In this document: one piece after another, positions 21,547 through 54,765 of the stretch
Layout: every line of letters starts with the position of its first letter
Position numbering within the stretch: position 1 is the first letter of the stretch
From: Beroe forskalii
Lineage: Eukaryota > Ctenophora > Nuda > Beroida > Beroidae
Assembly: GCA_011033025.1 (NCBI GenBank)
Contig: WFMF01000429.1
Span: 91,773 to 155,772 of the forward strand
Length of the DNA stretch: 64,000 nucleotides
Reading direction: 5' to 3'
Translations under genes and position numbers: made by a program
The notes under the pieces: model-generated
Told to the model about the DNA's origin: nothing
Seen by the model: only the letters and a program-made list of their open reading frames with translations
The model's database searches: none

Positions 21547-24500
21547 TTACTCAGTAACTGTTGTCGCTTCAGAAACGTATTCCTTGCCCTTGTAAGATAC
21601 CACAGCTACGTAAGGTCCCGTCCTACCCTTAGCCTTCTTTCCCAGCTTCATGTTGATGTTCCCCTTCTTAACCTTTGCTTTCTTGCACAACACCGGGTAA
21701 TTGTTGATCAACCTGCAGGTCTTCACTTGCTGCTTTGTCAGCTTGTCTCCGTTCTTAACGTCCACAGTAAAGGCTACTCTACAGGGCTTCTCCGCGACAC
21801 ACTTCACCACGGACTTCTTGGGAGATACCACGATGTCTGGTTGAGTGGGCACATTAACAGTCACTGTGAAGATATCCTCAGCTGTCTTGTCCCCCAGGGT
21901 CGCTTTACACCTCCACTCCCCCTCATCATCTGCTTCAGATGACTCCACCTTCAGAACCTTCCTGTCACTGGAGATGCCTTCCGTGTACTCTTCCTCCCCT
22001 TTAAACCACCTAATGTCCTTCTTTAGGACCCCTGCTGCCTCAACTTCACATGTCAGGGCTATGAGTTGTCCGGGGGTTACCTCTACGTCAGGGTTCACTG
22101 CTTTAACCCAGTCTGCTGAACAGAACGGACAGCAGTCATCTGCCTTCACAGCTTCTATCTCGTTAGCTGCACAGGAGAGAGCAGGACAGGGCAGATCAGA
22201 GCACGACATGTCCCCAGCTGCCAAACACGTGCATCTCTGACACTCTCCGGTCTTGTCAATAGTGTCCCCAACCTCGTAGAACTGTCCTTCGAACAGACAC
22301 TTGCACTGGGACGCGTCCACACACTGGCCGTCCTGCAGGAACTGTCCTCCTGGACAGAAGCAGCCCCTTGCCGTCCCCTCCTGCTCGGGACTCCTTTCCA
22401 GACAGGTGGGAGCTGGCAGAGGGCCAGCAGACTGGTAGGTGAGTCCTGCAGGGCACTCGTAGGGGCAATACGCCACTTCCTCCCTCCAATCTGCCAGATC
22501 CACTCCGTTCTGGACACAAGTAGAAGCGTAGGTGTCATAGACAGAGCACGCACAGCTCTTGTCGATGAAGCAGTTGCAGACATCCACCATGCAGTTATAG
22601 TAATCTCCGCCCTCTGCATCTCCGATTGAGACAGTGTTGTGACAAGCAGAGAAGGGGCTTCCTTTCAAATCATCGCAGATCTCTGCAGCCAGTCTGTGTC
22701 CATCGTCCACATCATCACAAGGGTGGAAGGGAGCAGGAGGAGCTGGACAGTTCTCATCGTATTCCTGGTAGTGATTGCCTGCGGAGTTAGGTCCACCTCC
22801 CACCAAGTCGTCTCCAGGGTTACCGTTGAAGTTGCCACAGAGTCCCTCAGTAACCGCAGCACAGGAGCCGTGCAGCAGTAGGTCTGCGTTGATGTACCGG
22901 CCCATGTGTGTGGCTCTGACCCTCAGCGCAGGAATCCGACCTTTGCTGCCCTGGTACAGGACTATCTCCAGTTGTCCGTTGTTCTGGATCTTGATAACGT
23001 CGCCGTTTGTGTACGTCTTCACGTAGGGAAGTTGAACGGCTGCTCCGTCCACTTCAGCTACGAAGTTGTTGGCAATGCTGAAAGTCTTGCCGTTGAAGTG
23101 AACCTCAGCTCGACCAGTGTATCGGGGTGCTCTGCCCAGGAGATCAACGTGTTTGAAGAAGACGGTGAAGTCGTCGCAACTGGCTGCCTGGTACGTGCAA
23201 CTACCGTGGAAGTCAAAGTACTTCCCGTCAAAGGTCCGGTAGTGGGGATCTCCTGAGCTGGAACAAATCCCAGTTTCCGGTACACAGCTAGATATACATG
23301 TCGCCTGATCAGTCCACTTCTGTTGTCCCGCAGGGCACGATACTTGGCCCCCTTCGCACAGGCAGACGAAGCTACCCTCAGGACCACATACACACCTAGC
23401 ATTGTTATCGTCAATGTAGGAGTCTCCCTCAGCAAACCCTTTCCCACTGGTGTCTATGCAGGTCACTGATAATACCTGGATCTCGTACATAGCAATAAGG
23501 GCGTAGTCGTTGTATTGACCGGAACGGTGGTTCACACTTAGTTCCACTGTGTCTCCACAAGCATCGCCACCACAGGTTACTCTGAGATTGAAGGGTTTAG
23601 TAACGAGCACAAACCAAGATATTACACACCGTGGCATAAGCATGGTGGGTAGTTGCTACACCACAGGTTACTCTGAGATTGAAGGGTTTAGTAACGAGCA
23701 CAAACCAAGATATTACATACCGTGACCTAAGCATGGTGGGTAGTAGCTACACCACAGGTTACCCTGAGATTGAAGGGTTTAGTAACGAGCACAAATCAAG
23801 ATATTACACACCGTGACCTAAGCATGGTGGGTAGTAGCTACACCACAGGTTACCCTGAGATTGAAGGGTTTAGTAACGAGCACAAACCAAGATATTACAC
23901 ACCGTGACCTAAGCATGGTGGGTAGTAGCTACACCACAGGTTACCCTGAGATTGAAGGGTTTAGTAACGAGCACAAACCAAGATATTATCTGTGGTAATC
24001 ACTGAGGGTTTTGAAAAGAAAGCAAATATGGACCAATGATGAAGTTATATACTACATCCAAGACGGCACTCCATAAATAAATCACAAATTGGGGTACGAC
24101 TCGCCACTTTCTAAGTGAATTCATTGATTGAGTGCCGTATGGCTTTGTGAAGGAGTTCATTCTGACCCTAAGACTAGTCCAGTTACCTCAATAACTCAAC
24201 AGATCAGTGTTTAACCTGTAAGGAGAGTCGTCCGTATATTTTAGTGTGCCACACAGGTGAGAAGCTCCACTGCCACTGTCAATGATACTGATCTCCGTTC
24301 CAGCCCTGCAAAGAAAATGAATAATTCAAAATCAAAGTACCTTGTATGTTTATATTTCTCCGTCAATCCAGTGTCTTATCTATAAAGGTTCATTTGTATA
24401 CAACAACCATAATAACAATGTTTGATGTTTGTGCTAATGTAGTTGATGAAGCAAACGGTAGATAACAAAAGAAAATTGCGGTTGAAAGCATTTATAGTTC

Positions 24501-25392
24501 GCAGCACTAGGAATAGCTTGCCCCAGCGAACCTGTATCTGCCACTTCCCTTGGTGCTGTAGAACACCACCTCCCCAACACAGGATCTCTCAGCAAACTTG
24601 GCCCGGAACCAGAGGTCCGTGTTCCAGTAGGTGCCGGAGAAGATGTACGTGCCGAAGTTACCGTCTATGGCCCGCGAGGCGGGGGTCTTGGCGTGCGACA
24701 TGGTCGCGTGAACCAGTCTCACTTGATCTGCTCCACTGGCTGCGGTCATTGGTGTGGTCATTGGTTACAAGGTGTGGTCATTGGTAACAAGGTGTGGTCA
24801 TTGGTTACAAGGTGTGGCCATTGGTTGCAAGGTGTGGTCATTGGTTACAGGGTGTGGTCATTGGTAACAAGGTGTGGTCATTGGTTACAGGGTGTGGTCA
24901 TTGGTTACAGGGTGTGGTCATTGGTTACAAGGTGTGGTCATTGGTTACAGGGTGTGGTCATTGGTAACAAGGTGTGGTCATTGGTTACAGGGTGTGGTCA
25001 TTAGTAACAGGGTGTGGTCATTGGTTACAAGGTGTGGTCATTGGTTACAGGGTGTGGTCATTGGTAACAGGGTGTGGTCATTGGTTACAGGGTGTGGTCA
25101 TTGGTTACAGGGTGTGGTCATTGGTTACAGGGTGTGGTCATTGGTAACAGGGTGTGGTCATTGGTTACAGGGTGTGGTCATTGGTTACAGGGTATGGTCA
25201 TTGAAGGGGAAGCAGAGTACCAAGTCATTGGAAAGTAGTGGATAATTTAGGGAACAAAAGTTCCGCTTTAAAAAGATTCGTCAGTCGTTAATCAAATTTT
25301 CTGCACTGTGAAGCGTGTAAATTCTTTGACAGACACTTACCATTGTCGAAGAGTGAAGCCAGGATAAAAAGCACAAGGCTGATTGATAACAT
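21547..25392 (-). CDS. Secreted discoidin-like / VWD-C8-TIL-VWC / Ig-like protein (4 exons, about 794 aa)
   Basis: Exons by splice signals and phase: 25341-25392, 24532-24739, 24216-24305, 21547-23581; the sum is 2385 nt. Exon 1 is a signal peptide (MLSISLVLFILASLFDN). Exons 2-3 and the start of exon 4 make a fucolectin/discoidin-like domain (ASRAIDGNFGTY, SHLCGTLKYTDDSPYR, then a CGD/NDYALIAMYEIQVL end). Exon 4 continues with a Cys-rich linker, a von Willebrand D domain (GDPHYRTFDGKYFDFHGSC, EGLCGNFNGNPGDDL), C8 with TIL-like Cys patterns, a VWC-type segment (CQRCTC, CCPFCS), an Ig-like domain (LTCEVEA, ADDEGEWRCKA) and a basic C-terminal domain. It is likely extracellular matrix, mucus or adhesive material. 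All introns use GT-AG. The exon 4 acceptor is tandemly amplified. A Met at 23643 could start a shorter form without signal peptide, but the spliced form is better supported. Confidence 0.85.
23568..23990. repeat. 91 bp tandem repeat across the exon 4 splice acceptor
   Basis: Five acceptor-bearing copies: the ctgagattgaaggg word starts at 23582, 23673, 23764, 23855 and 23946, exactly 91 bp apart. On the gene strand each reads ...cccttcaatctcag, then gtaacctgtggtg. The unit therefore contains the polypyrimidine tract, the AG and the first 14 or so exon bases. Only the copy at 23581 continues into open coding sequence; the upstream copies run into TAG within a few codons. Confidence 0.9.
24740..25207. 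repeat. 20 bp minisatellite in intron 1, abutting the exon 2 acceptor
   Basis: About 23 copies of ggtgtggtcattggttacag with a/t variation at one site. The last unit merges with the splice acceptor of exon 2 (gene strand: ccaatgaccgcag then the exon). The same array in the right arm (59956-60609) has about 32 units. Confidence 0.92.
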
Positions 25393-26334
25393 AGTTCAAC
25401 TCAAAAGCAAAACAACTTGTATTCTTGAGTCAATGAGCGTGAATAAGCTGGGTTGCCGAAGTGTAACCTCTCAGAATTCTGAGATAACACGTGACTATTT
25501 CAGGCAGTCTTGAAATCACGTTAATCGATCAAGTGATCCCATTGCTCAATCACCTGACTGATAAATTGAGACAATTACCTCAATGCACTCTGTGTTCTGG
25601 TATCACTACACTGAGTTGTCTAGAGTTGTCTCTAAATCAGCAGTAATCCATGAGGTGGTTGCGCGCTCCATCAATGTAGTTTTATTTTGATCTATATGAA
25701 CACCCTGAATAAATAGTACTGCGGGCTTTTTGCCCGAACTTTTGGAAGTAATGGGAGCAAAAAAAACACTATGTTTTAACAAGAAACAAGAGTTTGTGAA
25801 GCTAGCCTGGGACCAAATACAGTTTACAATACCCCCAACTAACTACTCTCTAATATCAATGTCACAATACACCGTTAGTTCCCATTATTAACCTGTATAA
25901 GTTCTAATAAGTCCTCTCTCCTGAGTCCAGTACAGTGGTATGATAAACAAACAGTGGGAGTGGGTCCCAGCAGAGCTCTCTGCAATGGAGAGCTGCCACC
26001 GTCACTCGCGCAAGCGGTGACGTGTGGTCTGTGGATTGTGCACGAAAAAAAACTGGTATATTAGATAAACAGTGGACGGCTTGGTTACTCACGTACTCCG
26101 TAGTGACATATAATATCACGTCATTAGAAAGATATTAAAATATTAGACAGGGTGTGTTAATAAAGCTAATAAATATATGTATTGGTATACTTCATAATAT
26201 ATTGGTCTGTTATTTAACGTTATTTATTGAAGGTTTTTATTACAATATGCCCCATCCCCCCTCCTTCATAATTGGCACTGTGCTCAATGTTTTGAAGTGG
26301 TTACCTGTGCTTGTACGATTGAATGTAACGAAGG

Positions 26335-26492
26335 ATTGAGTGTAAAAGTGTAAAGTAGGATTGGATGTAACGTAGGCTTGAATGTAACGTAGGATTGAAT
26401 GTAACGTAGGATTGAATGTAACGTAGGATTGAATGTAACGTAGGATTGAATGTAACGTAGGATTGAATGTAACGTAGGATTGAATGTAAAGT
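26335..26492. repeat. 17 bp minisatellite (gattgaatgtaacgtag)
   Basis: About nine copies; the inverted counterpart is at 58640-58795. Both arms keep it, so it predates the duplication. Confidence 0.88.
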
Positions 26493-26982
26493 AGGGTCAC
26501 CTGATCGAACGATTTTAGGAACCTGAATTGGAAGATTTCAAATGAATGATTTACGGAACAATTAGTTTCTCTTCGCCTGCTTACTTAGTACTTTAGTAAC
26601 GCTTCCGATATAGCCTCGATATCGACATATTCATTATTCGTGCTAGCGCCTAGCACTCATTTTACATTTCCAATCACTCAGTTCTCTCAAATTTTGATAC
26701 TTTCTCAACGGTTAAGATGTCTACTTTTGACTGATTATCTCTAGGAACTTGATAGATTGCCGGTTTTATTAATGGCTTGCTCCTCTTGTGATCATTTTAT
26801 TTCTCAGTGGTAGAGTTGGAAAAGTTATGATTCGAAGAAATTTGTTATTTCATTACTACGTTGAATTTGTGACCCGAGTTGTCAGATTTTTTGATATTCC
26901 AAACACACAAATGAATGAATGTCTGTATGTCTTTTTGTGATAAAGTATTAAGTATAACGAGAACATTATTATTCTATAGTAG

Positions 26983-27652
26983 TCTCACGACAAGTTTTGA
27001 CCGATTTAAAGGGTAGTACTATATGCGTAGAGTCGTGTTCTACACGCGTTTTATATCATGTGTCTGTTATGACTTACAACAAATACCTTTGTATTTGCGT
27101 TACAAAAATGTGTATATCTGAGGTTTTTGAGCAAACTTGTTTGAAACTTTCAGGATATTTAGAGCTAGATATAAGCAACATCTCAGTGAGAAGTTTAGAT
27201 TCATTTTTGAGCTCCAGAAGCGGAGTTATGACCGAAAAAGCCACTTATTAAGCGGTAACTTTAAAAACAAAAACACCAGTTTATTTGTCATATCTCAATT
27301 TCTGGAGGTCAAAAATGTTAGCTACTCCAGGATTATATTGGTCATATCCTGCCCGTAATATCCCGAAAATTTGATCAAAATTGCTCAAAAAACGGCTGAG
27401 TTATGCGCTTTTTTGTTTTGTGTAAACAAGCATTTTTTATTATTACCATATAAGGTAATGTGTGCGTGTTGTGTACACAGTATAGTACTTTAGAGGCTCA
27501 AACTTATGATTTAGAGCACTCGGCTGAGCTTCGCTTCGCCTCGCACTCTAAATCATTTAAATGTCTCCTGACGACATTTAAATATTATATAGAGCCCTGC
27601 TCTCGCAGGGCTCTATATTGTCTGCGTGTTCGTCTTACGCCTCTAAAGTACA
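26983..27652. mobile_element. Segment of about 670 bp present only in the left arm
   Basis: In the right arm, sequence equivalent to attattattctata is joined directly to tatatatacaagtgcc (58170-58195). The left arm has an extra ~670 bp between these. It ends with a compact palindromic block at 27485-27651 whose ends are the perfect 13 bp inverted repeat GTACTTTAGAGGC/GCCTCTAAAGTAC. Nested inside are gatttagagc/gctctaaatc-type, catttaaatg and agccctgctctcgcagggct palindromes. Insertion in the left arm or deletion in the right are both possible. Confidence 0.6.
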
Positions 27653-31000: not shown

Positions 31001-31002
31001 AG

Positions 31003-31690: not shown

Positions 31691-31749
31691 CTGGAACTGG
31701 TGGGCGGAACTGATGAGTTAAACGTGTGCAGCCCTTTATAAGGCAGCAA

Positions 31750-39141: not shown

Positions 39142-42100
39142 TCAAACGTGTATGTTGTTGGGGAGGTTTTTCAACTTCTTGCTGCTGTTCATGAGTTTGT
39201 CGGCTATCTGGTGGTTCGTGTTGTTGTAGCAATCGTTCTGTTCCATCGCTACCTTCTTCTTCAACTGCGTGGCCTAGAAGGGGTTAACGTTATAAGGGTT
39301 TAGAAGGGCAGCAAACTTTCCTGAAATATGAATATTTCTCCAATGAATCAATAGCATTGTGCTAATAGAGGACTAAAGGGGAGCGGACAATTCACCGCAC
39401 GACACTAAATCTTGTTTTATTTCAACTCCGAGCAAAAGTTAGAGTCTGGGTTAGGGTCTGGATGAGGTTTAAGGTTAGGGACAGGAAAGGGAGTGTCCCG
39501 AGCTGATGAAGTGTCCTGTGATCAAATGTCGTAAAACCTCAAGAAATGAATGAATATCGTTTACCTGGTCGGTGAAGTGCCGGGGGTTCGACAGGTTGAG
39601 GTTCTTCTCGACCCCCTGCAGCCAGTACGTCTGCACTAGTCCCTTGCCCTGCGAGGAATTGTGGTGAGCAGGTATCCTGGTTCAGAGGATTCAGAGATGA
39701 ATAAGACCTAACATTTGTTTAAATATCCAAGCATAGATGTGCAACTAAATTTCATTTCCAGCAAATTTCCTCATTTGATTAATTTCATTCAATTAATCTC
39801 TAAAAATCAGATATTGAGGTGAATACAATGAATAAACTAAACACTAAAGAAGATAAAGCAAACTATAAACCCACCTTCATTTCCACCAGGCCTCGGGGTT
39901 CAATGATGAAACCTCCATGGTGCTCCATTATCTTGTACGATTGCTCACTCATCTGGATTTTCAGTGCTGAAATAAGAGCATCAAAAACGGCCAAAAATGC
40001 AGTTCTAGATCAAGAAAAGATGAGTAGAGTCAGAGTGGCAATATTTCATTTCTGAAATAAGCTTGAGAGTTGCAGAAAAAGATCCATAAGAAATATCTGA
40101 ATTTGATTTGAATCCCTCTGATAGGCTACCGGGGAGGTACGTGACTCGTTCCCAATCCCATCTACAGCCCTTCAAGTGTCTAGGTGCAGGCGGTCTCGTC
40201 CCTAGGGACACATCTCCTTCACTAGGGGGATGTATCTCTCACAGATCCATCCCCCGTTCAGTAGTAAAGTAGTAAATACTGTTTTAGATGCATATTGAAT
40301 ATTGATCCCTTACCTTCTCCATTGGACTCCATTCTGCTGGCTGTGTTGACAGTGTCTCCGAAGAGGCAGTACCTTGGCATCTTCTTACCCACGATGCCAG
40401 CCACCACAGGTCCTGAAGAACATACAGTTAGTAAATATTTTTAAATTATTTTCATTTCCCGAACTTGTGACACTTATTTCTTTATGTGCAAGCAGTTGTG
40501 AATACTGAATACGTTGTCAATAATTCCTTCGCTATACAATGGTAAATAAATGATATTTGCATGGATGCAGGTATATTAATATTATTAAAAGTTTTTAACG
40601 AAAGTTTCACCAGAGTGCATGCCGATGCGTATCTTGAGCTTTTCGTTGGGCAGATGGCTGATTATGAAGTTGTTGACGTTGCTAAGGAAGTCGAGGGACA
40701 TGAGACCTATCTGGGCCGCGTGCCTGTCTCCGTTTCTAATTGGCAACCCCGACACAACCTGCGGAGAAACAGGTCGAAAATTGGAACTTGTTTTAAACAG
40801 CCTGTGTTTTTGAAGAAAGTAAGAGGTCGAGAATTGGAACTTGTTTTAATCGGTTTGCACTTTCATCAGATAAAAGGATTCTCACATTTATTAAAGGCTT
40901 TGAAATTATGTCACGTTATTCTCGGTAATATTGGTGGGGTTGTAGTGTGATCTCACCATGTAGGCATCCCCGATAGTTTCAACCTTGTAGCAGTCGTACT
41001 TCTCTATGCACGTGTCAAATAGAGTGTAGAGGTCGTTCAACATATCCAAAACCTGATAAGGAGATAAGGGTCAAAGATAGAATAGAGGTTTTAACGAAAA
41101 TCATCATTTGCTAATAACAAGTCGCATTGATAAATTTGGTAGAGCAAATGTTAGGCAAGTGTATCGCTGTTCCGAAAAGCAGAATTATTCACCTCGATGG
41201 GTTTTGAGCCGGAGCTGATGGCAGTGAAGCCGACAATGTCGCTGAAGTATATGGAAACACACTCGAACCACTCTGGAGGTACCATGTGCCCTGACTTCAG
41301 CTGATCTGCCACAGATCTGCAAATGAGGCTCTGTTATATCCCATAATTTTCACTGGTTTCCTGTAAAATCCGAAAATCGTTCAAAACTTTTATTATATTG
41401 TAATGTCAGAAGAATATACAGGAATTAAACAAATATAGTACAAATCATATGAGCCCATCAAATCATATGAGCCCAATTTTAAAAGTGCCAAAGTTACCAA
41501 AATTATTGTGTGACCAATATTTGTTTTATCAGCTATGATATTTATTGTTGAAATTTTTCATGTCTAATTATTGATACTAGAATATTGTTGAAATATTAAA
41601 TAATTGATTATATTATTTACACAAATATATCAAATAAATAAATAACAAATATACATTCTCTAATCCTAACTCCTTGTAAAACCAAGAAGTCCCCTCTGAT
41701 TCTGTCTAGCTGGTAATCCAGGGTAGCTGAAGTAGCGTCTTGGCAGAGAAGGTCTGAGATCTGACTGTCTGCAGAGGAGGAGTGAGATGATGTGTTTGCA
41801 GTAGACACTCAGTCGTCTGTCTGCAGGGAAGGACAGTTCCTCGTAGTAATGGTCAGGGTGAGTGAAGGCAGGTCTCCCACCACCAGTCTGTAAAGAGTCA
41901 CGCCAGCCGCCCAGATGTCTGCGTCCACCGGATCAAACCGACCCTTGAAGAGGATGTCGGGGGAGGCGTACAGCCGGGTTCCTTCGAAGTCTGTGAGAGG
42001 GGAGCCGGTGATGTAGGAGGCAGCTCCGAAGTCGATGAGTTTGATGGAGAGATCAGAAGGGTCGATGAGGATGTTCTCCGGCTTGATGTCCGAGGTGAGC

Positions 42101-45100
42101 CACTTCCATCTCCGAGTGGAGGTACACCATGGCAGAGAAGAGCTGCTTCATGATGGTCCTGCAGGGATCCTCCTCTAAGGTATCTGATGTTGAGGGTGTA
42201 GTCGAAGAGGTCCACCCACCCATCCAGGCACTCCAGGATCAGGAAGTAGTTCTTGGGGAGGCTGTAGAAGTCGAGGAGGTGGACGATGTTGGGATGGCTG
42301 ATACCTGCCATGATCTTCACTTCTCTGGGCACCGCCACACAGTCCAGGGAGTCCTTCACCTTCAGGTTCTTCTTGCTGATCTTCTTCACGATGACATCAC
42401 TGCCCAGCTGGTTGTGACTCGCTCTGTAGACGGTCCCGAAACCACCGGCTCCAATCTGAGGTCCCACGGAGTAGGTCTTCCTGAAGTGGTCGCTGTCTTC
42501 GGTGAAGGAGGAGGTCTTCTTGCTGCTCTTGCACTGTCCCATGGCGGTGGTGAAGTTGAAACAGGAAATGGTTATAGTTGGCAAGCTTGTAACAGTTAGA
42601 TTAGGAGAGTTGGATGAGGTTATGGTTATTTGAGAACAGTATTTATACCTGGCGCTCTGACACCGGTAGCATGCTTGCTTGAGAATAGGGGTCTGGTAAC
42701 GAGATCTCGTTATGCGGGATGACGATCACTTCAAGGGGGTGTCAGAGTGTGGGCACCGGACCTTGTTTCGTTGTTTGGTGTCAGGTGATGCTGTGCCCTA
42801 AGAGCGCTTGACAGCACCGTGACGAATGTACGCACTGACCCTCCCTATAATCAAGAACGGTTCCAAGACAACAACAAATCATGGATAGCTTGGCGGGTCT
42901 AAAATGAATCCATAAGAATTGTGATTTTTTGCGAATCTTGACCATGAATGAAAAGATTATAATACAATAATAAGGGGCTATGGCTCACCTCCTAGTCGGT
43001 TGCCCTGGAGACTGTCCTTAACTGCTTTATCCCTGACAGTTAGGTCTGAGCTGACGAGTCGCTTCAGCATTGCACTATGCTAGCTAATTCCACTACTAGA
43101 CTCACCAGGTAGTGGAACGCATCCCAACGTTCTATTGGTTTTGTAACTTGTGAGTATTTTGATGTGTCAAGAGCCTCTCTATGATATGTCATACAAGTTA
43201 CATCATCACTAGTGCAGCAAAACCAGTAAGGATCAATAGATATAATTACTACCGGGGTTTCTATATACCAACTAACCACCACTATTGCAGGAACCATTAT
43301 CTTGAATGTATCCCAACAGCCATGCATTCAGCCCGACCACAATATGTCTGCACAACCCGAGCTCAACAACTTAGCTCCAGGGCCCAGCAGCAATATCTCA
43401 GGAGGCCCCAGCAATAGTGGCCCCAATAACTCAAAGCTCCCTTGTGAGCTAACATCCCAATAGCTCAGGGGGCCCAGACAACCCAATAGCTCAGCAACCC
43501 AATAAGGGAGCAACAACCCAATAGCTCCATAACCAGGGCCCAACAATAATACCCAAGCCATCAGCCAATAGCTCAGGGGCCCAATAGCTCCACAGCCCAT
43601 CAGCCCAAGCAAATCACCATGGTCAGGGCAACACCTCTCTTTAAATTGAGATTTGGGTGGACAATAACAGTATTATCCTCCTCCCCCAGAACCCAACAAC
43701 CCAAGCTCCAGGGCCCAGCAATAACTCAGGGGCCAACAACCCAATATGTCCAGAATTTAACAACCCAATCAGGGGGCCCAACAACCCAATAGCTCCAGGG
43801 GCCCAACAACCATGTCCCTCAGGGGGGGCCCAACAAGCTCCAGGGGGCCCAGCAACCCAGCTCCAGGGGCCCAACACTATCAGGGGCCCAACAACTTAAT
43901 AGCTCAGGGCCCAAAAACCCAAAGCCCGGGGGACCCCAAACCCAAAAAGCCCAGGGGGCAACAACCCAAAGCCCGGGGGCCCCAAAACCCAATGGCCCCG
44001 GGGGGCCCAAAAACCCAAAAGCCCCCGGGCCCCAACAACCCAATAGCCCGGGGGCCCCCCCAAAGTTCGGGGCCAACCTGTCCAGGGGCCCAACCCCAAC
44101 CGGGGGCCCAAAAACCCAAAGTCGGAGCCCAACAAAACCCCGGGGGACCCCAAAAACCCAAAAGGGCCCGGGGGGCCCAAAAACCAAACCGGGGCCCAAA
44201 ATTAACCCCAACCCAATAGCTCGGGGGAGCCCAAAAACCCAAAAAAAGGCTAAGGGAGCCCAAAAACCCCAAAGGCCCCAGGGGAACCCAACCCCAAACC
44301 CAAAAAAGCCCAGGGGCCCAACAACCCCAATTCATGTGCCCCATAAACCCAAAGCCCGGGGGGGCCCAGAAACCCAAAAGCCCCTTGAGCCCATAAACCC
44401 CAAAACAAATCACCGGCCCACTCTCTTTTGTAAGTGGGGTGGGTGGACAATAACAGTGTTATCCTCCTCCCCAAGAACCATGCGGCATGGGAGCCCAACA
44501 ACCCAATAGCTCCAGGGAGCCCAACAACCCAATAGCTCCAGGGAGCCCAACAACCCAATAGCTCCAGGGGCCAACAACCCAATAACCAGGGGCCCAGCAA
44601 CCCAATAGCTCCAGGGGAGCCCAACAACCCAATAGCTCAGGGGGAGCCTAACAAACCCAATAGGCCCAGGGAGCCCAACAACCCAATAGCTCCAGGGAGC
44701 CCAACAACCCAATAGCTCCAGGGGAGCCCAACAACCCAATAGCTCAGGGGAGCCTAACAACCCAATAGCTCCAGGGAGCCCAACAAACCCAATAGCTCCA
44801 GGGGCCCAACAACCCAATAGCTCCAGGGGAGCCCAACAACCCAATAGCTCCAGGGGAGCCTAACAACCCATGGCTCAGGGGAGCCCAACAACCCAATAGC
44901 TCCAGGGGGAGCCCAACAACCCAATAGCTCCAGGGGAGCCCAACAACCCAATAGCTCCAGGGAGCCCAACAACCCAATAGCTCCAGGAGAGCCCAACAAC
45001 CCAATAGCTCCCAGGGAGCCCAACAACCCAAAAGCTCATGTGAGCATCAACCAAATAGCTCCATGGGAGCCCAGCAACCCAATAGCTCCATGTGAGCCCA

Positions 45101-48100
45101 TCAACCCAAGCAAATCACCATGGTCATTGGTTATTGGCAACACCCCACTCTCTTTTGTAAGTGGGGTGGGTGGAGAATAACAGTGTTATCCTCCTCCTTA
45201 AGAACCATGGCATGGGAGCCCAACAACCCAATAGCTCCATGTGAGCCCAAAAAACATTATAGCTCCATCAAAACCAAATAGCTCCATATCTACATTTAGC
45301 CTAACAACCCAACAGCTCTCTGTGAGCCAAATAGTTCCATATGAGCTCAACAACCAAAGCAACTCCCAAGCAATCTAATAACTCCTCACTATTACAAAAC
45401 TGCTGCCAGTTATAATCTACCTATATCAGGTCACAGTTTTTTGGCAACACTCTACTTTCCTTTCAAAGTGGGGTGGGTGGAGAATAACAGTGTTGTTCTC
45501 TGCCCCAAGAACCAAGACCTGGAAGCCGTTTGCTCCAAACACAGCTGTTTCCAGTGGGCACATGAACAATATGTACTGAATGCAACACTGTTACACCATA
45601 TGAAATTTTTACGTGGTAACTTCATGCATTTAACAAAAATGTTGCAAATTCAAAATTTGCTTCCAACCTAGTAGTAGTACAAAATTAAAAAAATACATTA
45701 CAAATTTACCAAATAAACCAATTTACCTAATCAACATGAATACTATAACCACTTTGTCAATGGAAAAAGACCACAAACTTTATTGATATAACAAAAAAAT
45801 CATTGCACACCAACTTCGTTAAACTGGGAAGTTTTAGACTAATTATTCCCTTGTATCCAGTGGATAATGAAAATGCAGTTTTTAGAAACGAATAACACGC
45901 CATCACTTATAGAAAAACCACACAATTTTAAGCTGTCCCAGCATTAAAGTCAACCAAAAAGCCATTCTGATAGATATCAGACATAAATGTTGCGATGAAA
46001 CCTACTTGAGAGTACATCAATGAAACACAAAAAGCTTTTCATACACGCCAAAAAAGATATGAAAAAGGACTTTGATAGTAGTAACACCATGGATAACTAT
46101 GACAAGAATTCATGAATCTAATGCAACTAACCACACCCTACCGTCAAGGTAATCTGTGAACTGCACAAATCATAAATTAACAGAGAAAAAGCAAGGTAAC
46201 TCATAATACAGTTTTATATACTAAACATCAGCTATAAAATATGGAAGTACTGACAGAAAATCCATCCTTTATTAGGTAAACAATGGATAAAACGAAAATG
46301 AAACAAGAAATAACTAAATTGCTAAACCATCAAAGTTGTATGTGAAAAGTAGGCAAAAATAATCTAAGCACGTGGATGCTAATGATAGTCGACCAGAGAA
46401 CACTGCTCAGAGACACTTAGTAATAACATAGTAAACTGCCTCATTCTTGAGCCTGAACAAAACACACTTTTCGATTGCAAAAGGACCTTAAGGACAGGAG
46501 CTTTACCTGCAGGAATATACAAAAACATACCAAGAAATAGAAACAAACCAAAAAAGGGTTATTCACTCTGTTCGCCCAATAATGAGGAACATGACACATA
46601 ACAGGACATTCTTTCCCATTACTTGTCCTAGAAATAAAGAAGAATGGGAGGAGAAGATTTGGTTGCTTCATCGCCTCAAAAAAGAAGCAAACTGGCATGT
46701 ATTCGGCTCAAGTTGAACAGACAGATAACTGCTTGAGCTGGGGCCATTGGGGTCTATTACCCAATTGGAGAATATAGATAAGCGAACAATACTCTGTATA
46801 GATATCTGTCCTCTACTATATAGATTATTAGTTATGCCAACATATTATCAGCCAAACCGCGACCGTTGCCTCTCAGACTATGAGGGGCCATGTCGTATGG
46901 CACAGCGCCTCCGCGGAAGCGCATTTTACCTACCTACCTACCTTATCCAATAATAACTTACTTAGGCAGCATGGATTCCAGGAGGTCATCTGTTCGCTTC
47001 TTCTCAACTTGTAACTGAGCTGTTCTCTCGTCAACCACCTCCTCCAAGTTAGTAGCGTATTTCTCCATCCGAGAAAGAAGGTTCTCCACAATACCAAAGT
47101 TAGAACTGAAGTTTAAGAATTCAAGTCAGAAATAGTTAAAATGCAATGATGTAACTGCTGGCTCCATTGCGTTGGTTTTGAATCTAAACCTAAGTAACGT
47201 AGTGCAAGCCCAAGGTGGCTTTATGAACCACAAAGAAGCCCATTATTAACTTCTTGAAAAACAATAGTAAAATACCCGTCAGTTCGTATAGATCTGAGTG
47301 ATGATCTGATCTGCTGGATAGCAGGTCGTTGGCGGGGGTCTTCCTTCCAGCAGTCTCGAGCCAGGGAGGAGACTGTGGCTATCTTTAGGTCGGTGGAGAA
47401 GGGGAACTCAGGGCGGTAGGGAGTCGTGGTACCCGTCTTACGGATCATACAGATCACCTCTAAAAGAGGGATGGGTGTGTTACATTTTAAACTACAAGGA
47501 TCATACAGATCACTTCTAAAAGAGGGATGGGTCTGTTACATTTTACACTTCAAGGATCATACAGATCACCTCTAGAAATAGGGATGGGTGTGTTACATTT
47601 TACACTCCAAGGATCATACAGATCACTTCTAAAAGAGGGATGGGTGTGTAACACAACAGGGTCACAAGGACCATACGTATCAATACTGAAAAAGAAGAGG
47701 ATGGAGTTATGAAGAGATAGGACTTTACGAGGGGGTTGTAAATCATCAGAACAACGCATTCTTCGGATTAAACAAGTCTGAAACATGGCAAGGCAAATGC
47801 AGAATGTCCTCACCAGTCGCAGTCAAGTCGCTCTGCATGCTCGACAGTCCGAAGGGTCCTTCCCTAACCAGTATCTCGTGAAGCACTATCCCGAAGCTGT
47901 AGATGTCGCCCTCCTTGGTGCCTTGACACGGCACACACTGCATTCTCAGGAGCTCCGGAGCTCGGTACACCAGACCTGACAAAGGACAGAATGTCAGGTC
48001 TTTTAAATTATATCCCCCACCCTTTTCGATCAAAAGAGGGAGGGAAGGTCGCATCATCATCATTATCAGAAGGTTATAAATCTGATCTGAGTCTGGGTTG

Positions 48101-51100
48101 GATATTGATTATGAAGTCAAAACTCAAATTTACCCAGGTGAAACACTCGCATCTCCCTTTGGCTAGTTAAGCTGTTATGAGCAGTGAAAGAATCAATGAA
48201 TTCAAACAGCCATGATCGAAGAGTACTCACGTTCGTTCATGGCTTCCTCAGTAGCCCTACTGAGCCTCTCCATATCACTCATGAAGATGGTCCTACTGAA
48301 GTCTGAGATCTTGAGAGCGAACTGGTTGTTGATGATACAGTTGGAGGACTTGAGGTATCCGTGGCTTCCGATCACTGAATCGTGGATGTACTTCAAGCCC
48401 TGGGGGAGAGTGGGTATTGGAAAATTGCAAGGTATAACTATACCTACATACAGAGTGTCCACTGAAGGTTGAAACGGTTCTGAATAGCTTGGAATTCATG
48501 CACAAAGAACAAATTTCGACCAGTCTTGTTAACAAAATTGTAAATGGAAATGAAACAAGAATCATATTTGATGATGCTCAAACATGGAATTTACTAATTT
48601 AATGACATGGAGTTGGAAATCCTACCTGAGCCAGATCGTGAATGAGACTGAACTTGAGCATGTCATCAAGCTTCACATCATCGTTCTCCAGGATATCCTG
48701 CGAGTTTTGTGATTTTAAATTTTTCGCAGAATAAACGTCTGAATGTATTATTCAGAGTTTTTGAGTTTGTCCGGGTGATTTTAGTTTCCTCCGAATTAAA
48801 GTATCAATATTGACACTCTAATTTATCATCTTTCAATAATGATGAATTTTTCGACCCTGTCGAGACTCGCAGCGTACAGTCGCGCACTTCTCAGCCGCAC
48901 ACAATTCTCAGCCGGCATGAGCCAGGGTAGTACACGGTAAGAAGAGTGGGATCAATTTTACCTGTAGGGAGCCCTTGCTGCAGTACTCCGTCACCAGAAA
49001 AGCGATGTCCCTGTCAATTATAGCCCCGTACACAGTCAACAGATTCTCGTTACGCATATCTTTCAACTGCAGGAGCAAACATATGTGTACGGTTCAAGGA
49101 TGCATCTGGTTTAGAGTTTAGACCCACAGTACAGCCCGTAGGGCGAGGCTCTTTAAAACCAATATGGACCGATCAGGTTAGTGTCTAGTATTTATCATAG
49201 ACACCAATGAAAGCGTCAGAGGGTTTTATTAAGTATAAACATCAGTAACCCGCTCACCGCTTTCATCTCAACCATGAGTTCCCTCGATATTCCCATGTAC
49301 TGAGGTAGTACTGTCTTTAGTGCGACGATCTTATTCTCGAACTGGCCACGTCTCGAGAAGAACTGGTGGCTCTTTCCCTTCATGTTCGTAGACTCACTCG
49401 ACTGAAAGCACGGAAAAGTGAGGACAAGAGATACAAAATATCTGTCGTATCAATTAAACGTTTTAAAGTTTTAACTTTGACACCATTCAAGTTCTGAATG
49501 GAGTATGAGCAGCGACCATCGACTTAACAATGCTTAAGCAATGCGGAATATGCGACGGTCTATGTCGACAGGAGGAGGAACTGAGAAAAGGAGAGGGGAA
49601 AGGAGAAAAAATGGTCTCTAAACAGCAGTGTGTAAGAAGTTCGACCCTAAAAACCTAACTTCCTCTTCCCACGAAACACTCGACAGAGAAGAGCCCCTCG
49701 TTGCGGGGAGTGATCTCCTGGAACCGAAGACGGAGGAGCCCAGGGGGTCCCTGGCCACGTCCCGCACACTGCTCAGAGGAATCCGCCATGACATCGCCGC
49801 CAGAGACGCCTCGTACCGCACCTTCCTGATAGAGCATTAAACTATTACTTGTTATAGCATCACGTGTCATAGCAACACGTGTCATAGCAACACGTTTCAT
49901 AGCAACCACTGTCATAGCAACACGTTTCATAACAACCAGTGTCATAGCAACACGTGTCATAGCAACACGTGTCATAGCAACACGTTTCATAGCAACCAGT
50001 TTCATAGCAACCAGTGTCATAGCAATACTTTTCATAGCAACCAGTTTCATAGCAACCAGTGTCATAGCCACACGTGTCATAGCAACCAGTTTCATAGCGA
50101 CACGTGTCATAGCAACACGTGTCATAGCAACACGTGTCATAGCAACACGTGTCATAACAAAACGTGGCATAGCAACACGTTTCATAGCAACCAGTGTCAT
50201 AGCAACCAGTGTCATAGCCACACGTTTCATAACAACCAGTTTCATAGCAACCAGTGTCATAGCAACACGTGTCATAACAAAACGTGGCATAGCAACACGT
50301 GTCATAACAACCAGTTTCATAGCAACCAGTGTCATAGCAACACGTTTCATAACAACCAGTTTCATAGCAACCAGTGTCATAGCAACAAGTGTCATAGCAA
50401 CAGGTGTCATAGCAACGGATGTCATAGCAACAGATGTCATAGCAACAGATGTCATAGCAATAACTCAATGAGTTCCATAGGACATCAAATCTGTACACCT
50501 GACGTATGACGTACCTGTACACATAACGTGTGACGCACCTGTACACATGACGTGTGACGCACCTGTACACATAACGTATGACGCACCTGTACATGAAGAT
50601 CATGACTGCTAGCCCCGACACAAGGAGAATAACGGCACCAGCAGTGGCTCCGATGGCAATGGTCAGGGTCGAGTCTGGAAACATGCAAGAGAAGAGGGTC
50701 AAACTATTGAAGGGAGATGATCAGAAGTAGTGCAACTGCCGCATCGACAGCAGGCACTATAGATTAGGTGGTTAAATATCTGATAAAACAAGTATTTGAG
50801 ATAGGAATTGTAAGAGAGAATATTTAATAAGAAGACATAATATCACCGATACATATTAATCATATCACTGATATGTTAAAAGATATTGCATTTGTTAAAA
50901 GTGGTCACTGCAGGTCAAATGGTCAAAAGATCAGATCACTTCCCGGTTTGGTGCCGGTCTCACACCATAAACGCCGGCAATTCCTTCTGTAGATAAAACA
51001 AGAAACATATGAGAGAGAGGACTCACCACACTTCTCGCCCTCAAAGCCACACTTGGGTTCAGCCAGGGGGGCCGCCTTGGCACCGCCAGGCCACGCTATT

Positions 51101-54100
51101 TCCCACTCCTCCTTCTCCTTCTTGTATTCATTATTCGCATATGAACCCACTTCCTGTTGGGAAGATGCTTTAGAGCTTTAGGACGAGAGGGAGCGAATTT
51201 ATAAAACCAAAAGTTTGGTTCCTAGGTCTCTCCCTCCGCATGCGTACGTCTTTTGGAGGCAATTTCATCGGTTGTGATGTATTATCTGGAGTTAAACAAA
51301 TGGAAGGGTATAATTTGTAATGTTGCCAACAAAATAAATAATTAATAATTACCTCCCATTCCCCGTTCTTGTCAAGGTGCCAGAAGATAAAGCTGTTGAC
51401 TCTGTCCCCGAATTCGTCCAGAGTTATGTTTCCCGTGATCGGCTCAATATCGCTAAAATTTGTCTCTGAGGGGGCAAGGGCATCAAAAGTGAAAGCAGTT
51501 ATCACGTCCATAGCACAGTAATCAATAACTTTTGGCTATATAAGGATTTAAAGCGGTAATCAATGTGTTAAACTGATAATAAGATTAGTTGGTGTATTGG
51601 ACTAGCTCGTGATCGAAAGATCCTGGGTTCGATTCCCTGCCATTTCCTGGTATGAAATTTGTATTTCGTTGCGTGTTATCTCTCTGAGTCTCTGCTATCT
51701 GATTAGCTGATAAGCGCATCACACACCACTGCTTTCTTGCGAGTGCTAAATACATGATATGGATAACACTGGTTTGATTACACTTGAATTCTTCGCTTCC
51801 TGTCATTGGCCGTACGGTTGTTCGATAAGACTAAGAGGTGAAACCTTCAAAAGTGGTCAAAAAGGGCAGTAGTTTGCAAGTGTACGGGAAAGGGACATTT
51901 CACCCCACGACACTTCACCTCGCAATATTTTACCTCTAGGCACCTCTTGACAAAGGTTATGGACTGCAGATTAGAGTTATGGGTAAGGTCAGAACTGGGA
52001 TATGTAATAAAGTGTCGTGAGGTAAAATGCTATGAGGTGAAGTGTTGTGAATCGGAAATGTCGCGGGGCTCCCGTGAATAGTGTTAACTAACTGGTGAAG
52101 GTTTTTCCGTAGAGCTCATTGACAGCGATAGCTTTGGTGACGGGGTCGTAGTGGTTCTTCATAGCGTAGGCCCACAGGAGCACCGAGTCGTGGTAGTTAG
52201 CTGCGTACAGGGGCAACTGAAGGGGGATAATCAGAGGAATTGGCATGATGGCCGATACATCAATAATCAGAGGAATTAGCAGGGGAAGGCGAACAATAAA
52301 GCAATAAGACGGAGCACAGGCTGGTCATGGAGCCCTCTATATCAAAATTCTACTATTTTAAAATCAAATTAACCATGGTAATTTCTATGCATTGAAGGAT
52401 TGACAATTGCAATGAAAATTCGGGGCCTATTCGACAACAAAACTCAGTCATGATGATGCCCTTACCGCTCTGTCATCAGCAATGATGTGGTTGAAGGGTG
52501 GATCCTTTGCCTTCTTCTTCACAGCCTCAGAGAATTCCTGGAACTTGAGCGGCTCTATGTCGGCGTTAACGATGAATGCTGCCTGAAGTACAGGTAGAGG
52601 AGTTGAGAGGTTTCCATGGGGAAGAGTGGATGTTTTATTAAGTCACAACTTGGTCATAACTTTGTCACCACTAGGTTACATTTGGTACCACTAGGTTACC
52701 AAGTTTTGGTTACCACTAGGTTACCACTAAGTTACCGGGCTTTGGTTACCACCTGGTTACCACCTGGTTACCACCTGGTTACCACCTGGTTACCACCTGG
52801 TTACCACCTGGTTACCACTTGGTCTCCACTTTGGTTACCTGGAAGGCTTTGTGTGCGTCCTCGTCTCTGCTCTTCCCCTTCTGAGAGGAGTCGAAGTAGA
52901 GCTCATCATCTGCTCCGACCCATGTGTAACACGGGTAGTAGTTCGTAGGAACGATGATAAACACGTACTCGTTCGACTCAGTCATGCCTGGGAAGTGGGA
53001 ATAAAAACGTACTCGTTTGACTCGGTCATTCCTGGGAAGTGGGAATAAACACGTTTTCAATCGACTCGGTCATTCCTGGGAATAAACACGTACTAATTCG
53101 ACTCCGTCATGCCTGGGAAGTGGGAAAAAACGTATTCAATCGACTCTGTGATGCCTGAGAAGTGAGAATAAACAATATGAGTAAACACGTACTCATTCAA
53201 ATGTCATGCTCGGGAATAAACACGTATTCATTCAAATCATTTCAGTTATTTTTTGGCAACCAGTAATATAAGGCTTATCAACATAATGGCAACGATAAAA
53301 GCATGTCTAATACTAATACTTAATAGGAGATAATTTAAAATCTCGGCTGTAATCTCATATGTTGCAATGGCAATGCCTGCATCGTAAGCTTGTAGCATCA
53401 TGTCCCTCACCATACGCTGACTGCCGAACAGGATTATAACTGAAACGGTTTGTTTTTACAAAAGCAAATTTGCTGACAATGACAATTTTAGTCAATTTGA
53501 GGGAGTGAACCTCACAAATTAAGTCTATTTCATACAGGGCCTTTTGTTTGACGGCAGGCTATGGAGTTACCGGTCTGATAACATTGGACCACCCTTCACA
53601 AGCCACTACCAGGTGGCTCTGACAGCTGTTAGTGAGACTCATCATAAAATTTAGTCCCGGTTTTCAGCTTAATCGAGGCAAACCTGAAAACTATAGATGC
53701 TATAGAACGTGCTGGGAATGTTAAGATGTGACATGAAAAGTCACATGTGATACGAAATGTGTGCCTGGGAAGACGGGAGACTGGGAGTGGGAGAATTTAG
53801 GACGAATGATGACTGATGCGACTGTGGAATCTGTAGATCAACTTACCTCTGGATCTTGACTTGATGGCATCCCCCTTGAAATAAGTCTCAGTGAAGTTCT
53901 TGTACATTTCAAGCTTTTCCTCATACAGTTCAGGGAATATGCTCTTGAGGTCAAAGTCTCCCTTTTCCTCGTCAGCCAGCGATACCGGGTAACTGCCCAA
54001 CAGTGCTATCTGGGAGGTGTCCAGCACGTCAAAGAGATCTGCATTGCCTATCGTCTGGAAGAAGTTGTGAGCCCGGTAGGATGCTTCGTACACTTCGTGT

Positions 54101-54765
54101 ATGATGGTCATGTGACTGGTCCACTTGAAGAGCCGCAGGAACTCGATGAACGCTTGGTACGCCACGGAGGGGTCGAACCTGATGGTGTTTCCCCACCCCT
54201 TGGCTACTTTATTCTCCGGAGCTATGGGTTCCCGGCTCTCCTGCAACAGCAGAGCGGACTGCACGAACATGGCCTGCCCGAGGAAGGAGCGCAGCGCTGA
54301 GGTCTGCGAGGAGAGGTCCTTGTGGGACCCAACAATGAACATCACCTCCTTCCCCGCCTCCGCCAGTCTGTCCAGGCACCGGCCCGTTTTCCAGGCGTCC
54401 CCACACTGGTTGTACTCGCTCCTGTTAAACCAATTCCCCGCGTGGGACCTGTCCCACTCGTTAACGGGCACGTCAGCGAAGGTCAGGAGTTCGAGGTTGG
54501 GCTCGTACGTATCGTTGCCGAAGTACTTGTGCACCTTGGCCAGCGCCACGAAGGCAGCGGGCCCACACTCGTAGCCTGGACAGGGAGGGTTCTCCAAGCC
54601 ATAGATATCTACGCTCTCTGGCTTGTAGAGGTCCAGGAAACCGTAGATAGGCTGCGAGTCCTGTGGGTCATCTTGGGTCTCAGGGGTATCTGGAGTGTCT
54701 TGTGATGAGATAAGGAAGAGGAGGAGGAGGAGAAGGGGAGGAAGGAGATTGCGGAGATTGCTCAT
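39142..54765 (-). CDS. Receptor (membrane) guanylate cyclase, 23 exons, about 1206 aa
   Basis: Complete gene rebuilt exon by exon, all in phase (3621 nt). It converts GTP to cGMP at the plasma membrane in response to an unknown extracellular ligand. Order: signal peptide (about 1-22, Leu-rich), ANF-receptor-like ectodomain (to ~537), one membrane helix ([18 protein letters not shown], ~547-564), kinase-homology domain (~570-900), coiled-coil dimerisation segment (~901-948), and cyclase domain (~949-1163) with a basic Asn-rich tail. The natriuretic-peptide-receptor type is clear from overall order and motifs; the ligand class is not. Exon coordinates are in the three block entries. The gene has strikingly repeat-laden introns, one apparent GC-AG intron (after exon 2), and a kinase pseudogene inside intron 16. 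It converges with the BTB gene, 864 bp away. Confidence 0.92.
41666..42542 (-). pseudogene. PIM-like Ser/Thr kinase, intronless, three frameshifts
   Basis: Starts at an ATG in a strong context (accgccATGG) with MGQCKSSKK, an N-myristoylation/palmitoylation-type end. Then follow [13 protein letters not shown] (Gly loop), VIVKK (catalytic Lys), [61 protein letters not shown] and [18 protein letters not shown], an order and wording close to PIM kinases. The frame breaks three times by single bases: +1 near 42177 (before [12 protein letters not shown]), +1 near 42094 (VAHL/DIKPEN, where HRD would be) and -1 near 41852 ([17 protein letters not shown]). The last frame ends at 41666. It sits in the same strand inside cyclase intron 16. 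It is either a decayed retrocopy or a live single-exon gene with indel errors in the assembly. Confidence 0.7.
43350..45400. repeat. About 27 bp minisatellite with higher-order blocks, in cyclase intron 16
   Basis: The unit is roughly cccaacaacccaatagctcc then aggggag; about 60-70 units with many variants, including a degraded G/C-run section at 43900-44400. The array is divided by a conserved spacer (gtggggtgggtgga, then aataacagtgttatcctcc) seen near 43650, 44435, 45160 and 45470, so blocks of several hundred bases have themselves been duplicated. Long frames reading GCWAPWSYW are artefacts of the repeat. Confidence 0.9.
45480..46961. other. Rest of cyclase intron 16, nothing coding seen
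   Basis: AT-rich intron sequence up to the donor of exon 16. An 85-codon minus frame at 46441-46698 shows no domain. Confidence 0.5.
47276..49825 (-). other. Guanylate cyclase exons 9-15: kinase-homology domain
   Basis: Exons: 49660-49825, 49258-49401, 48962-49066, 48626-48697, 48231-48399, 47814-47975, 47276-47459. Motifs: [13 protein letters not shown] (juxtamembrane), [13 protein letters not shown] (the Lys strand), [43 protein letters not shown] in place of the catalytic HRD loop, [10 protein letters not shown] in place of [26 protein letters not shown] and [10 protein letters not shown]. Loss of HRD and DFG means a pseudokinase, as is usual for membrane guanylate cyclases, where this domain transmits the signal and binds ATP. 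The exon 15 acceptor sits in a 56 bp tandem repeat. Confidence 0.9.
47440..47690. repeat. 56 bp tandem repeat containing the exon 15 splice acceptor
   Basis: ggatcatacagatca starts at 47442, 47498, 47554 and 47611 (56, 56 and 57 bp apart), with a decayed fifth copy near 47668. On the gene strand each copy reads ccctcttttag then a(g/a)gtgatctgtatgatcc, i.e. intron end, AG, and the first 20 or so exon bases. Only the copy next to exon 15 continues as coding sequence. Confidence 0.9.
49857..50466. repeat. 15 bp minisatellite filling most of cyclase intron 8
   Basis: About 40 copies of gtcatagcaacacgt or ttcatagcaaccagt. The array begins about 32 bp from the exon 9 acceptor and ends about 25 bp from the donor-derived array. 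The unit is a multiple of three without stops, which explains the long spurious frames. CACGTG E-box palindromes recur. Confidence 0.93.
50493..50594. repeat. 24 bp tandem repeat containing the exon 8 splice donor
   Basis: On the gene strand the unit is atgtacag/gtgcgtcatacgtt. The real exon 8 end (ttcatgtacag/gtgcgt at 50587) is the first of about four copies, each with its own tacag/gtgcgt or tacag/gtacgt donor-like site. Confidence 0.88.
51580..51800 (+). mobile_element. Possible tRNA-derived SINE
   Basis: attagttggtgtattgga resembles a tRNA D-arm with part of an A box, and 33 bp on ggttcgattcc is an exact B box inside a T-arm-like ctggg/ccctg stem. The 5' acceptor stem is not convincing, and about 150 bp of unrelated sequence follows without a clear poly-A. 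It lies in cyclase intron 5. It is better read as a truncated SINE than as a working tRNA. Confidence 0.45.
51886..52080. mobile_element. MITE-like inverted repeat in cyclase intron 5
   Basis: The left end acgggaaagggacatttcac, then cgacacttcacctcgc, is reverse-complementary with mismatches to the right end gaggtgaagtgttgtga, then ggaaatgtcgcggggctcccg. A diverged relative lies near 39380-39535 (ggagcggacaattcaccgca ... aagtgtcctgtgatcaaatg). Confidence 0.55.
52662..52845. repeat. 11 bp minisatellite starting at the exon 3 splice donor
   Basis: On the gene strand the exon 3 end and donor read ttccag/gtaacc, immediately followed by runs of GTGGTAACCAG. About seven perfect copies are followed by diverged ones. 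Each unit contains CCAG/GTGGTAACC, resembling the donor itself. Confidence 0.9.
52955..53245. repeat. 44 bp tandem repeat containing the exon 3 splice acceptor
   Basis: On + the unit starts gtcatgcctgggaagtggga. Starts at 52981, 53025, 53069, 53106 and 53148, plus one or two decayed copies to about 53245. On the gene strand it reads ttcccacttcccag/gcatgactgagtcgaacgag and on to tttatt. About 31 bases of exon 3 and 13-15 bases of intron have been amplified together. Confidence 0.9.

What the first reader, a model, noticed from the sequence alone, without database searches (positions are those of the whole stretch)
21547..54765. Tandem repeats repeatedly nucleated on splice junctions in unrelated genes
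In two genes I see five arrays whose unit includes or starts at a splice site: VWD-gene exon 4 acceptor (91 bp), cyclase exon 3 acceptor (44 bp), exon 3 donor (11 bp), exon 8 donor (24 bp) and exon 15 acceptor (56 bp). In three of them 14-31 bases of true coding exon are copied along with the intron end. The discoidin exon 2 acceptor (20 bp array) abuts another array. Random minisatellites should mostly miss exon edges. This suggests a process that duplicates AG/GT-containing boundaries, as in models of intron gain or growth by tandem exon-segment duplication, here caught at several stages. I have not seen this pattern described as a genome-wide habit.
Basis: partly seen in the sequence, partly recalled or inferred. 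Interest (0 to 1): 0.88.

Follow-up and report, generated by a model that had tools for sequence, protein, structure and literature searches.

The report
Repeats built from exon-intron junctions
In this comb jelly genome some short repeat arrays inside genes are copies of an exon-intron junction, a pattern known as 'mirages' from the lancelet; much of it is expected because the introns are short, though it may be somewhat commoner than chance.

Summary
The five arrays are real and the splice sites hold. The genome is a ctenophore's: the cyclase is 62% identical to a Bolinopsis protein, and spliced alignment to it recovers the four cyclase junctions. The same thing occurs in other genes elsewhere in the genome: KICSTOR subunit 2, CFAP69, another cyclase. 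Inner copies nearly always keep AG or GT, yet homology indicates that the exon-proximal copy is used.

The stated null ('should mostly miss exon edges') is wrong here, because introns are about 230 bp. In verified genes 11 of 24 arrays cross a junction; random placement of the unit predicts 4.0 (P about 1.5e-4). Outside the window it is 6 of 11 against 1.7 (P = 0.001), but two of those three genes were verified partly because arrays lay near their junctions. With ancestral introns of at most 218 bp the expectation is 6.6 (P = 0.035); at 120 bp the excess vanishes.

The pattern is not new in kind: amphioxus 'mirages'. Intron growth is visible; intron gain is not shown. Verdict: real, recurrent here, perhaps modestly enriched; new member of a known kind.

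The parts
23568..23988 (-). 91-bp x 4.6 array over the acceptor of VWD-gene exon 4 (exon starts at 23581); 14 exon bases in each copy
   Evidence: TRF; sequence; all five copies of the junction keep AG
52957..53174 (-). 44-bp x 5.2 array over the acceptor of cyclase exon 3 (exon 52987-52839); 31 exon bases copied
   Evidence: TRF; junction by spliced alignment; 4 of 4 inner copies keep AG
52648..52839 (-). 11-bp x 17 array starting at the donor of cyclase exon 3 (one exon base shared)
   Evidence: TRF; junction; borderline crossing; no inner copy detected by the 16-base comparison
50491..50593 (-). 24-bp x 4.3 array over the donor of cyclase exon 8 (exon 50674-50587); 7 exon bases copied
   Evidence: TRF; junction; 3 of 3 inner copies keep GT
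47442..47653 (-). 56-bp x 3.8 array over the acceptor of cyclase exon 15 (exon 47459-47276); 18 exon bases copied
   Evidence: TRF; junction; 3 of 3 inner copies keep AG
49850..50460 (-). 15-bp x 41 array inside cyclase intron 8, ends 24 bp short of the exon 9 acceptor (does not cross)
24751..25203 (-). 20-bp x 23 array in discoidin/VWD-gene intron 1, ends 15 bp short of exon 2 (does not cross)
39875..54765 (-). membrane guanylate cyclase gene (natriuretic-peptide-receptor type by its Bolinopsis relative's name); catalytic exons between 39875 and 41333
21547..25392 (-). discoidin-like/VWD/C8/Ig gene, four exons by reading frame

Best explanation
These are ctenophore 'mirages'. Generic tandem duplication (slippage, unequal exchange or end-joining repair) strikes short introns at many places. 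When the duplicated segment happens to span an exon-intron junction, the gene survives because the spliceosome keeps using the copy next to the exon; the other copies become intron. The array then grows and shrinks like any minisatellite and lengthens the intron. Shown: the arrays, the junctions, the exon bases in the copies, the kept AG/GT, the presence in several unrelated genes, copy-number difference between paralogs. Inferred: that the exon-proximal copy is used in this species' RNA (from ortholog proteins only), the duplication mechanism, and tolerance by selection. The remaining excess over random placement (about 2.7-fold at present intron lengths, 1.7-fold under a stricter assumption) may come from introns having been shorter when the arrays arose, from my choice of genes to verify, and from the exon copy being held by selection, so that the seed of the array is never lost.
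For: Arrays and junctions. Copied exon length spans 1-61 bases with no fixed register. One of the 11 crossing units in verified genes is a multiple of three, fitting inner copies that are spliced out. The spliced models align to the ortholog proteins without gaps at the crossed cyclase junctions and run on through the crossed junctions of KICSTOR subunit 2 and CFAP69. TRF arrays cover 14% of the window and 0.7-26% of the 19 fetched 10-kb stretches; array-free introns have a median of 232 bp (n = 32), so crossing is often expected. The paralogous cyclase intron has the 34-bp donor-derived unit 8 times at the donor in L048 and 24-25 times in L050. Amphioxus precedent, where RT-PCR suggests normal splicing (passage).
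Against: 11 crossings where 4.0 are expected (P about 1.5e-4) is more than chance at present intron lengths, also outside the window (6 of 11 against 1.7); tolerance alone does not predict more crossings than near misses, yet 13 cross and 6 stop within one unit short (P = 0.08; hand count, test).
Confidence: 0.67

Rival explanations
1. A mutational process favours junctions: something about splice-site sequence or co-transcriptional structure makes AG/GT-containing segments duplicate more often, so arrays start there by preference.
For: Excess at present intron lengths: verified genes 11 of 24 against 4.0, outside the window 6 of 11 against 1.7; crossings exceed near misses 13 to 6; copied exon share leans to small values, mean 0.36 of the unit over 12 arrays.
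Against: The excess falls to P = 0.035 with intron length capped at 218 bp and to nothing at 120 bp. Two of the three genes outside the window were verified after arrays had been seen near their junctions; in the genes not so chosen 3 of 8 arrays cross against 1.0 (P = 0.045), two of the three weak or doubtful, and with the cap 3 against 2.4 (P = 0.43). Copied exon length ranges from 1 to 61 bases, with no register. Donors and acceptors are both affected, with unrelated units.
Confidence: 0.18
2. [quoted passage not shown]
For: Two cyclase introns carry short direct repeats at both ends (CAGGCAT at intron 2, TCGAGTG at intron 9). In the strumpellin gene (L035) a 60-bp duplication leaves more than one possible donor in frame. 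Precedents are described in passages of PMC4974935.
Against: Every crossing array in the verified genes overlaps only one end of its intron; no intron here was shown to be new, and by my rough estimate, not computed, 7-bp repeats are within reach of chance in about 20 introns.
Confidence: 0.06
3. Pure coincidence: arrays are placed at random and the first reader noticed the ones on junctions.
For: Expected crossing is 0.13-0.44 per array in the array-bearing introns shorter than 800 bp of verified genes; no excess if ancestral introns were 120 bp or shorter; in genes not chosen for verification the capped test shows none (3 of 8 against 2.4).
Against: The excess at present lengths outside the window (6 of 11 against 1.7); array-free introns have a median of 232 bp, and only 1 of 32 is under 120 bp.
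Confidence: 0.09

Closest known systems
Amphioxus 'mirages' (Adh3, globins BflGb6 and BflGb9, troponin C, PGBD5)
   Same: Minisatellite-like tandem repeats spanning exon-intron boundaries, at both 5' and 3' boundaries, AG/GT in many copies, unit lengths 10-160 bp, copy-number variation (passages of PMC3087553 and PMC3902484)
   Different: Another phylum; present here in all five verified genes, of which two were reported for it and two verified partly for it; in amphioxus RNA was checked, here it was not
[quoted passage not shown] ATP2A1; potato RdRp; fission yeast 24-bp exonic repeat), as summarised in passages of PMC4974935
   Same: Tandem duplication of splice-signal-containing segments makes intron sequence out of exon sequence
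   Different: There the duplication creates a new intron; here it enlarges an existing one
Ordinary minisatellites of tandem-repeat-rich genomes (TRF% of the ctenophore Hormiphora genome, PMC8527503 passage)
   Same: TRF share of the same order as here
   Different: The arrays described here include the splice site and coding bases

Membership tests
Mirage (amphioxus sense) | Tandem repeat unit spans an exon-intron boundary and includes coding bases | tested here: met
   11 of 24 arrays in verified genes; one of them (exon 3 donor) by a single base, one (CFAP69 acceptor) by unit homology because TRF stops 31 bp short
Mirage (amphioxus sense) | Occurs at both donors and acceptors | tested here: met
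   Verified set: 4 donors and 7 acceptors
Mirage (amphioxus sense) | Inner copies keep AG/GT | tested here: met
   14 arrays without paralogs: 45 of 48 inner copies in 12 of them; none detected for the 11-bp exon 3 donor array; the VWD array was scored out of register there (1 of 4) and shows AG in 4 of 4 inner copies when read in register. The two L050 paralog arrays: 26 of 26.
Mirage (amphioxus sense) | mRNA is spliced normally, inner sites unused | tested here: inconclusive
   Ortholog proteins support exon-proximal use; no RNA of this species available
Mirage (amphioxus sense) | Copy number unstable between alleles | tested here: inconclusive
   Paralogs differ: L048 8 donor copies, L050 24-25; alleles not available
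[quoted passage not shown]
   Only proteins, no genomic DNA, of other ctenophores were at hand
[quoted passage not shown]
   In the verified genes each crossing array overlaps one end of the intron only; the L048 cyclase intron has two different arrays, one at each end

The most novel reading that the evidence does not exclude
Junction-spanning tandem duplication is a genome-wide habit of ctenophores: duplication is biased towards exon edges and is a main source of intron growth, and their splicing machinery reliably picks the exon-proximal copy among up to about 25 near-identical sites.
Probability: 0.21. Interest if true: 0.72.

Novelty: new member of a known kind. Interest (0 to 1): 0.46.

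Why it matters
Arrays of near-identical splice sites, of which only the outermost seems to be used, are a natural test of how the spliceosome chooses among equal sites (exon definition against scanning). If mirages are common in both lancelets and comb jellies, tandem duplication at exon edges would be a general route of intron growth, and occasionally of intron gain, in tandem-repeat-rich animal genomes. The cyclase paralogs on contig C142 (8 against 24-25 copies at one donor) make growth visible.

Tried and rejected
Mechanical gene prediction: my own exon finder gave 154 strong exons and 302 junction ends. Over the cyclase region 31 of its 44 junction ends agreed with the homology model (the misses include exons of a nested kinase gene). 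It chose wrong sites near several arrays: VWD exon 4 and cyclase exon 15 by 2 bp, KICSTOR subunit 2 exon 6 by 30 bp, CFAP69 by 17 bp, strumpellin. I therefore rested the main test on genes aligned to orthologs (cyclase, KICSTOR subunit 2, CFAP69), on a continuous domain match (L048 cyclase) or on frame (VWD).

Selection to be told: KICSTOR subunit 2 and CFAP69 were picked for the ortholog searches after one search had shown arrays near their junctions, which inflates the excess outside the window. The ab initio genes, not so picked, give 3 crossings of 8 arrays (1.0 expected, P = 0.045; with the 218-bp cap 2.4, P = 0.43). Of the three, L033 1830-1976 is clear by eye, the TAF5 one is weak (TRF score 61) and L033 5279-5507 (143 bases into a predicted exon) is doubtful. 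The strumpellin array was not among the 8 because the predicted exon end was wrong. All genes together: 14 of 32 against 5.0 (P = 1.4e-5), capped 9.0 (P = 0.03).

Rows dropped before the counts, after reading the sequence or the gene model: L043 263/353 (a coding repeat, no intron), L038 755 (Q-rich coding), L041 8228 and L042 3254 (weak exons), L017 (unclear frame), and predictions at window 21567, 29572/29608, 41316 and 44484-45553. Paralog arrays in L050 and the second arm at 60613 were not counted again. Of 31 short loci 13 were left out as overlapping others. The mirror count (13 to 6) is by hand: it takes in L013, L049, L008, L019 and L029, whose junctions rest on a recalled cyclase motif or on the exon finder, and leaves out L033, TAF5 and strumpellin; two other counts tried, 11 of 14 and 12 of 18, give P = 0.03 and 0.12. 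The block at L048 6230-7312 is the same unit as the donor array but was counted as not crossing.

Rejected: a site-specific process with fixed register; protein-coding expansion (1 of 11 verified units divisible by three; the units of L013 and L049, outside that set, are divisible). PDB searches gave nothing for strumpellin or the window's 945-aa discoidin ORF. Nine paper searches (listings only) showed no report of junction repeats in ctenophores; they cover open-licence papers alone. The original amphioxus Adh paper did not turn up; I know it through passages of PMC3087553 and PMC3902484. Of PMC2812944 I saw the outline only.

Full report
What the window is. The window lies in a 216-Mb genome in 1134 contigs. 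The cyclase protein spliced from the window has its two best matches in the ctenophore Bolinopsis microptera (P0001, 59% identity in the search, 62% in the alignment), and a CFAP69 gene elsewhere in the genome matches Bolinopsis and Mnemiopsis best (69%), so this is a ctenophore.

The observation. TRF finds the five arrays at the stated places. I tested the cyclase junctions with a spliced protein-to-DNA aligner that I wrote, which chooses introns by itself. With P0001 as query it returned the same exon 3 acceptor and donor, exon 8 donor and exon 15 acceptor as the hand-made model, and the proteins align without gaps at these points. Intron 2 has a GC donor. The VWD exon 4 acceptor rests on reading phase. 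Exon bases in the arrays: 14, 31, 18, 7 and 1 (VWD exon 4, cyclase exon 3 acceptor, exon 15, exon 8, exon 3 donor). The last is borderline. The discoidin exon 2 array stops 15 bp short.

Beyond the window. I fetched 190 kb from three contigs: 15 of the 19 stretches were picked without knowledge of their arrays, and four because they hold cyclase-domain hits. Junction-crossing arrays appeared again. KICSTOR subunit 2 (ortholog proteins P0010 and P0012): a 68-bp duplication with 61 exon bases, and a 29-bp array with 9 exon bases, at two acceptors; a third array stops 4 bp short of an acceptor. CFAP69 (three relatives' proteins): a 35-bp array with 6 exon bases at a donor; at an acceptor, an array whose unit repeats the junction although TRF stops 31 bp short. 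A cyclase on C142 (Pfam family Guanylate_cyc continuous across the junction; 'adenylate' is my recall): a 34-bp unit with 20 exon bases at the donor and a 52-bp unit with 18 at the acceptor of the same intron. By eye also L013, L033 and L049, and probably strumpellin, where my exon finder took the wrong copy.

Is it more than chance? The right null is not 'arrays should miss exon edges'. If the segment that first duplicated lay at random over an intron of length L and its flanks, it crosses a junction with probability 2(u-1)/(L+u-1). In the window, apart from the 5.7-kb intron, u is 11-91 and array-subtracted intron length 76-318 bp, giving 0.20-0.44. Over 46 introns of verified genes there are 24 arrays (TRF score at least 50, period at least 8). 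Eleven cross; 4.0 are expected (P about 1.5e-4). Outside the window 6 of 11 cross against 1.7 expected (P = 0.001). Without the CFAP69 acceptor, which I called by unit homology, the outside count is 5 against 1.7 (P = 0.01); without it and the borderline exon 3 donor the full count is 9 against 4.0 (P = 0.006). Two things weaken this. First, KICSTOR subunit 2 and CFAP69 were chosen for verification after arrays had been seen near their junctions; genes not so chosen give 3 of 8 against 1.0 (P = 0.045), of which one is clear, one weak and one doubtful. Second, the result depends on how long introns were when the arrays arose: with length capped at 218 bp the expectation for the 24 arrays is 6.6 (P = 0.035; outside the window 6 against 3.1, P = 0.052), and at 120 bp 9.8 (P = 0.38). 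Array-free introns in these genes have a median of 232 bp (n = 32), so the 218-bp version is the fairest. A second, local test asks whether an array edge within one unit of a junction lies inside the exon or just inside the intron: 13 against 6 by hand count (P = 0.08). I conclude that there may be a modest excess, not a proven one. Much of the striking impression comes from short introns.

How it works. Inner copies keep AG or GT almost always: 45 of 48 over 12 arrays, plus 4 of 4 in the VWD array read in register. The ortholog proteins place the used site at the exon-proximal copy. In 7 of 9 acceptor arrays (VWD left out, one a paralog) no inner acceptor scored as high as the true one; at donors this held in the cyclase exon 8 and L049 arrays but not in CFAP69 (1 of 2 inner donors as high) or the C142 cyclase (7 of 7, and 23 of 24 in its paralog). 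The scoring matrix was trained on a set that includes these sites, so this is only suggestive. One of the 11 crossing units in verified genes is a multiple of three, fitting intronic fate. The share of the unit that is exon averages 0.36 and ranges from 0.09 to 0.90 (12 arrays, CFAP69 acceptor and L049 left out; uniform rejected at P = 0.03): no fixed register, with a lean towards small shares, as mild selection against long exon copies would give. Growth is visible in the cyclase paralogs on C142: 8 donor-derived copies beside the donor in L048 and 24-25 in L050, with a further block of the same unit inside the L048 intron.

What is known. Amphioxus genes carry the same structures, named mirages (Adh3, globins; also troponin C and PGBD5), at both boundaries, apparently without disturbing splicing, and with a proposed route to intron gain (passages of PMC3087553; of PMC3902484). 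Tandem duplication of AGGT segments as a source of introns is an established model with worked cases (passages of PMC4974935). The ctenophore Hormiphora has 13% tandem repeats by TRF and 2357 nested intronic genes (passages of PMC8527503). Nine paper searches showed no report of mirages in ctenophores (listed in Tried and rejected). So this is a new member of a known kind, in a distant phylum and recurrent.

Limits.

Noticed in passing
window 23992-28170 and 57664-61362: Large inverted duplication, 93-96% identical over the main matches, carrying the first exons of the discoidin/VWD gene and both a 17-bp and a 20-bp array; the 20-bp array has about 23 copies in one arm and 32 in the other. The alignment edge at 23992 lies 4 bp from the 91-bp array.
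   Followed up: partly
window 41898-42725: A protein-kinase gene on the same strand sits inside the 5.7-kb intron 16 of the cyclase; nested genes are reported as common in Hormiphora.
   Followed up: partly
window 35537-37464: About 84 copies of a 23-bp unit containing a palindrome with a one-base centre (GTTACGC-A-GCGTAAC).
   Followed up: no
window 53377 and 52987; 49678 and 49401: Short direct repeats at both ends of cyclase introns 2 (CAGGCAT, with a GC donor) and 9 (TCGAGTG).
   Followed up: no
L035 8852-8968: Strumpellin gene: 60-bp in-frame duplication leaves more than one possible donor in phase, a natural case for seeing whether an exon has lengthened.
   Followed up: partly
L048 6230-7312: A second block (about 31 copies by TRF) of the 34-bp donor-derived unit, 1.6 kb downstream of the donor array in the same intron.
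   Followed up: partly
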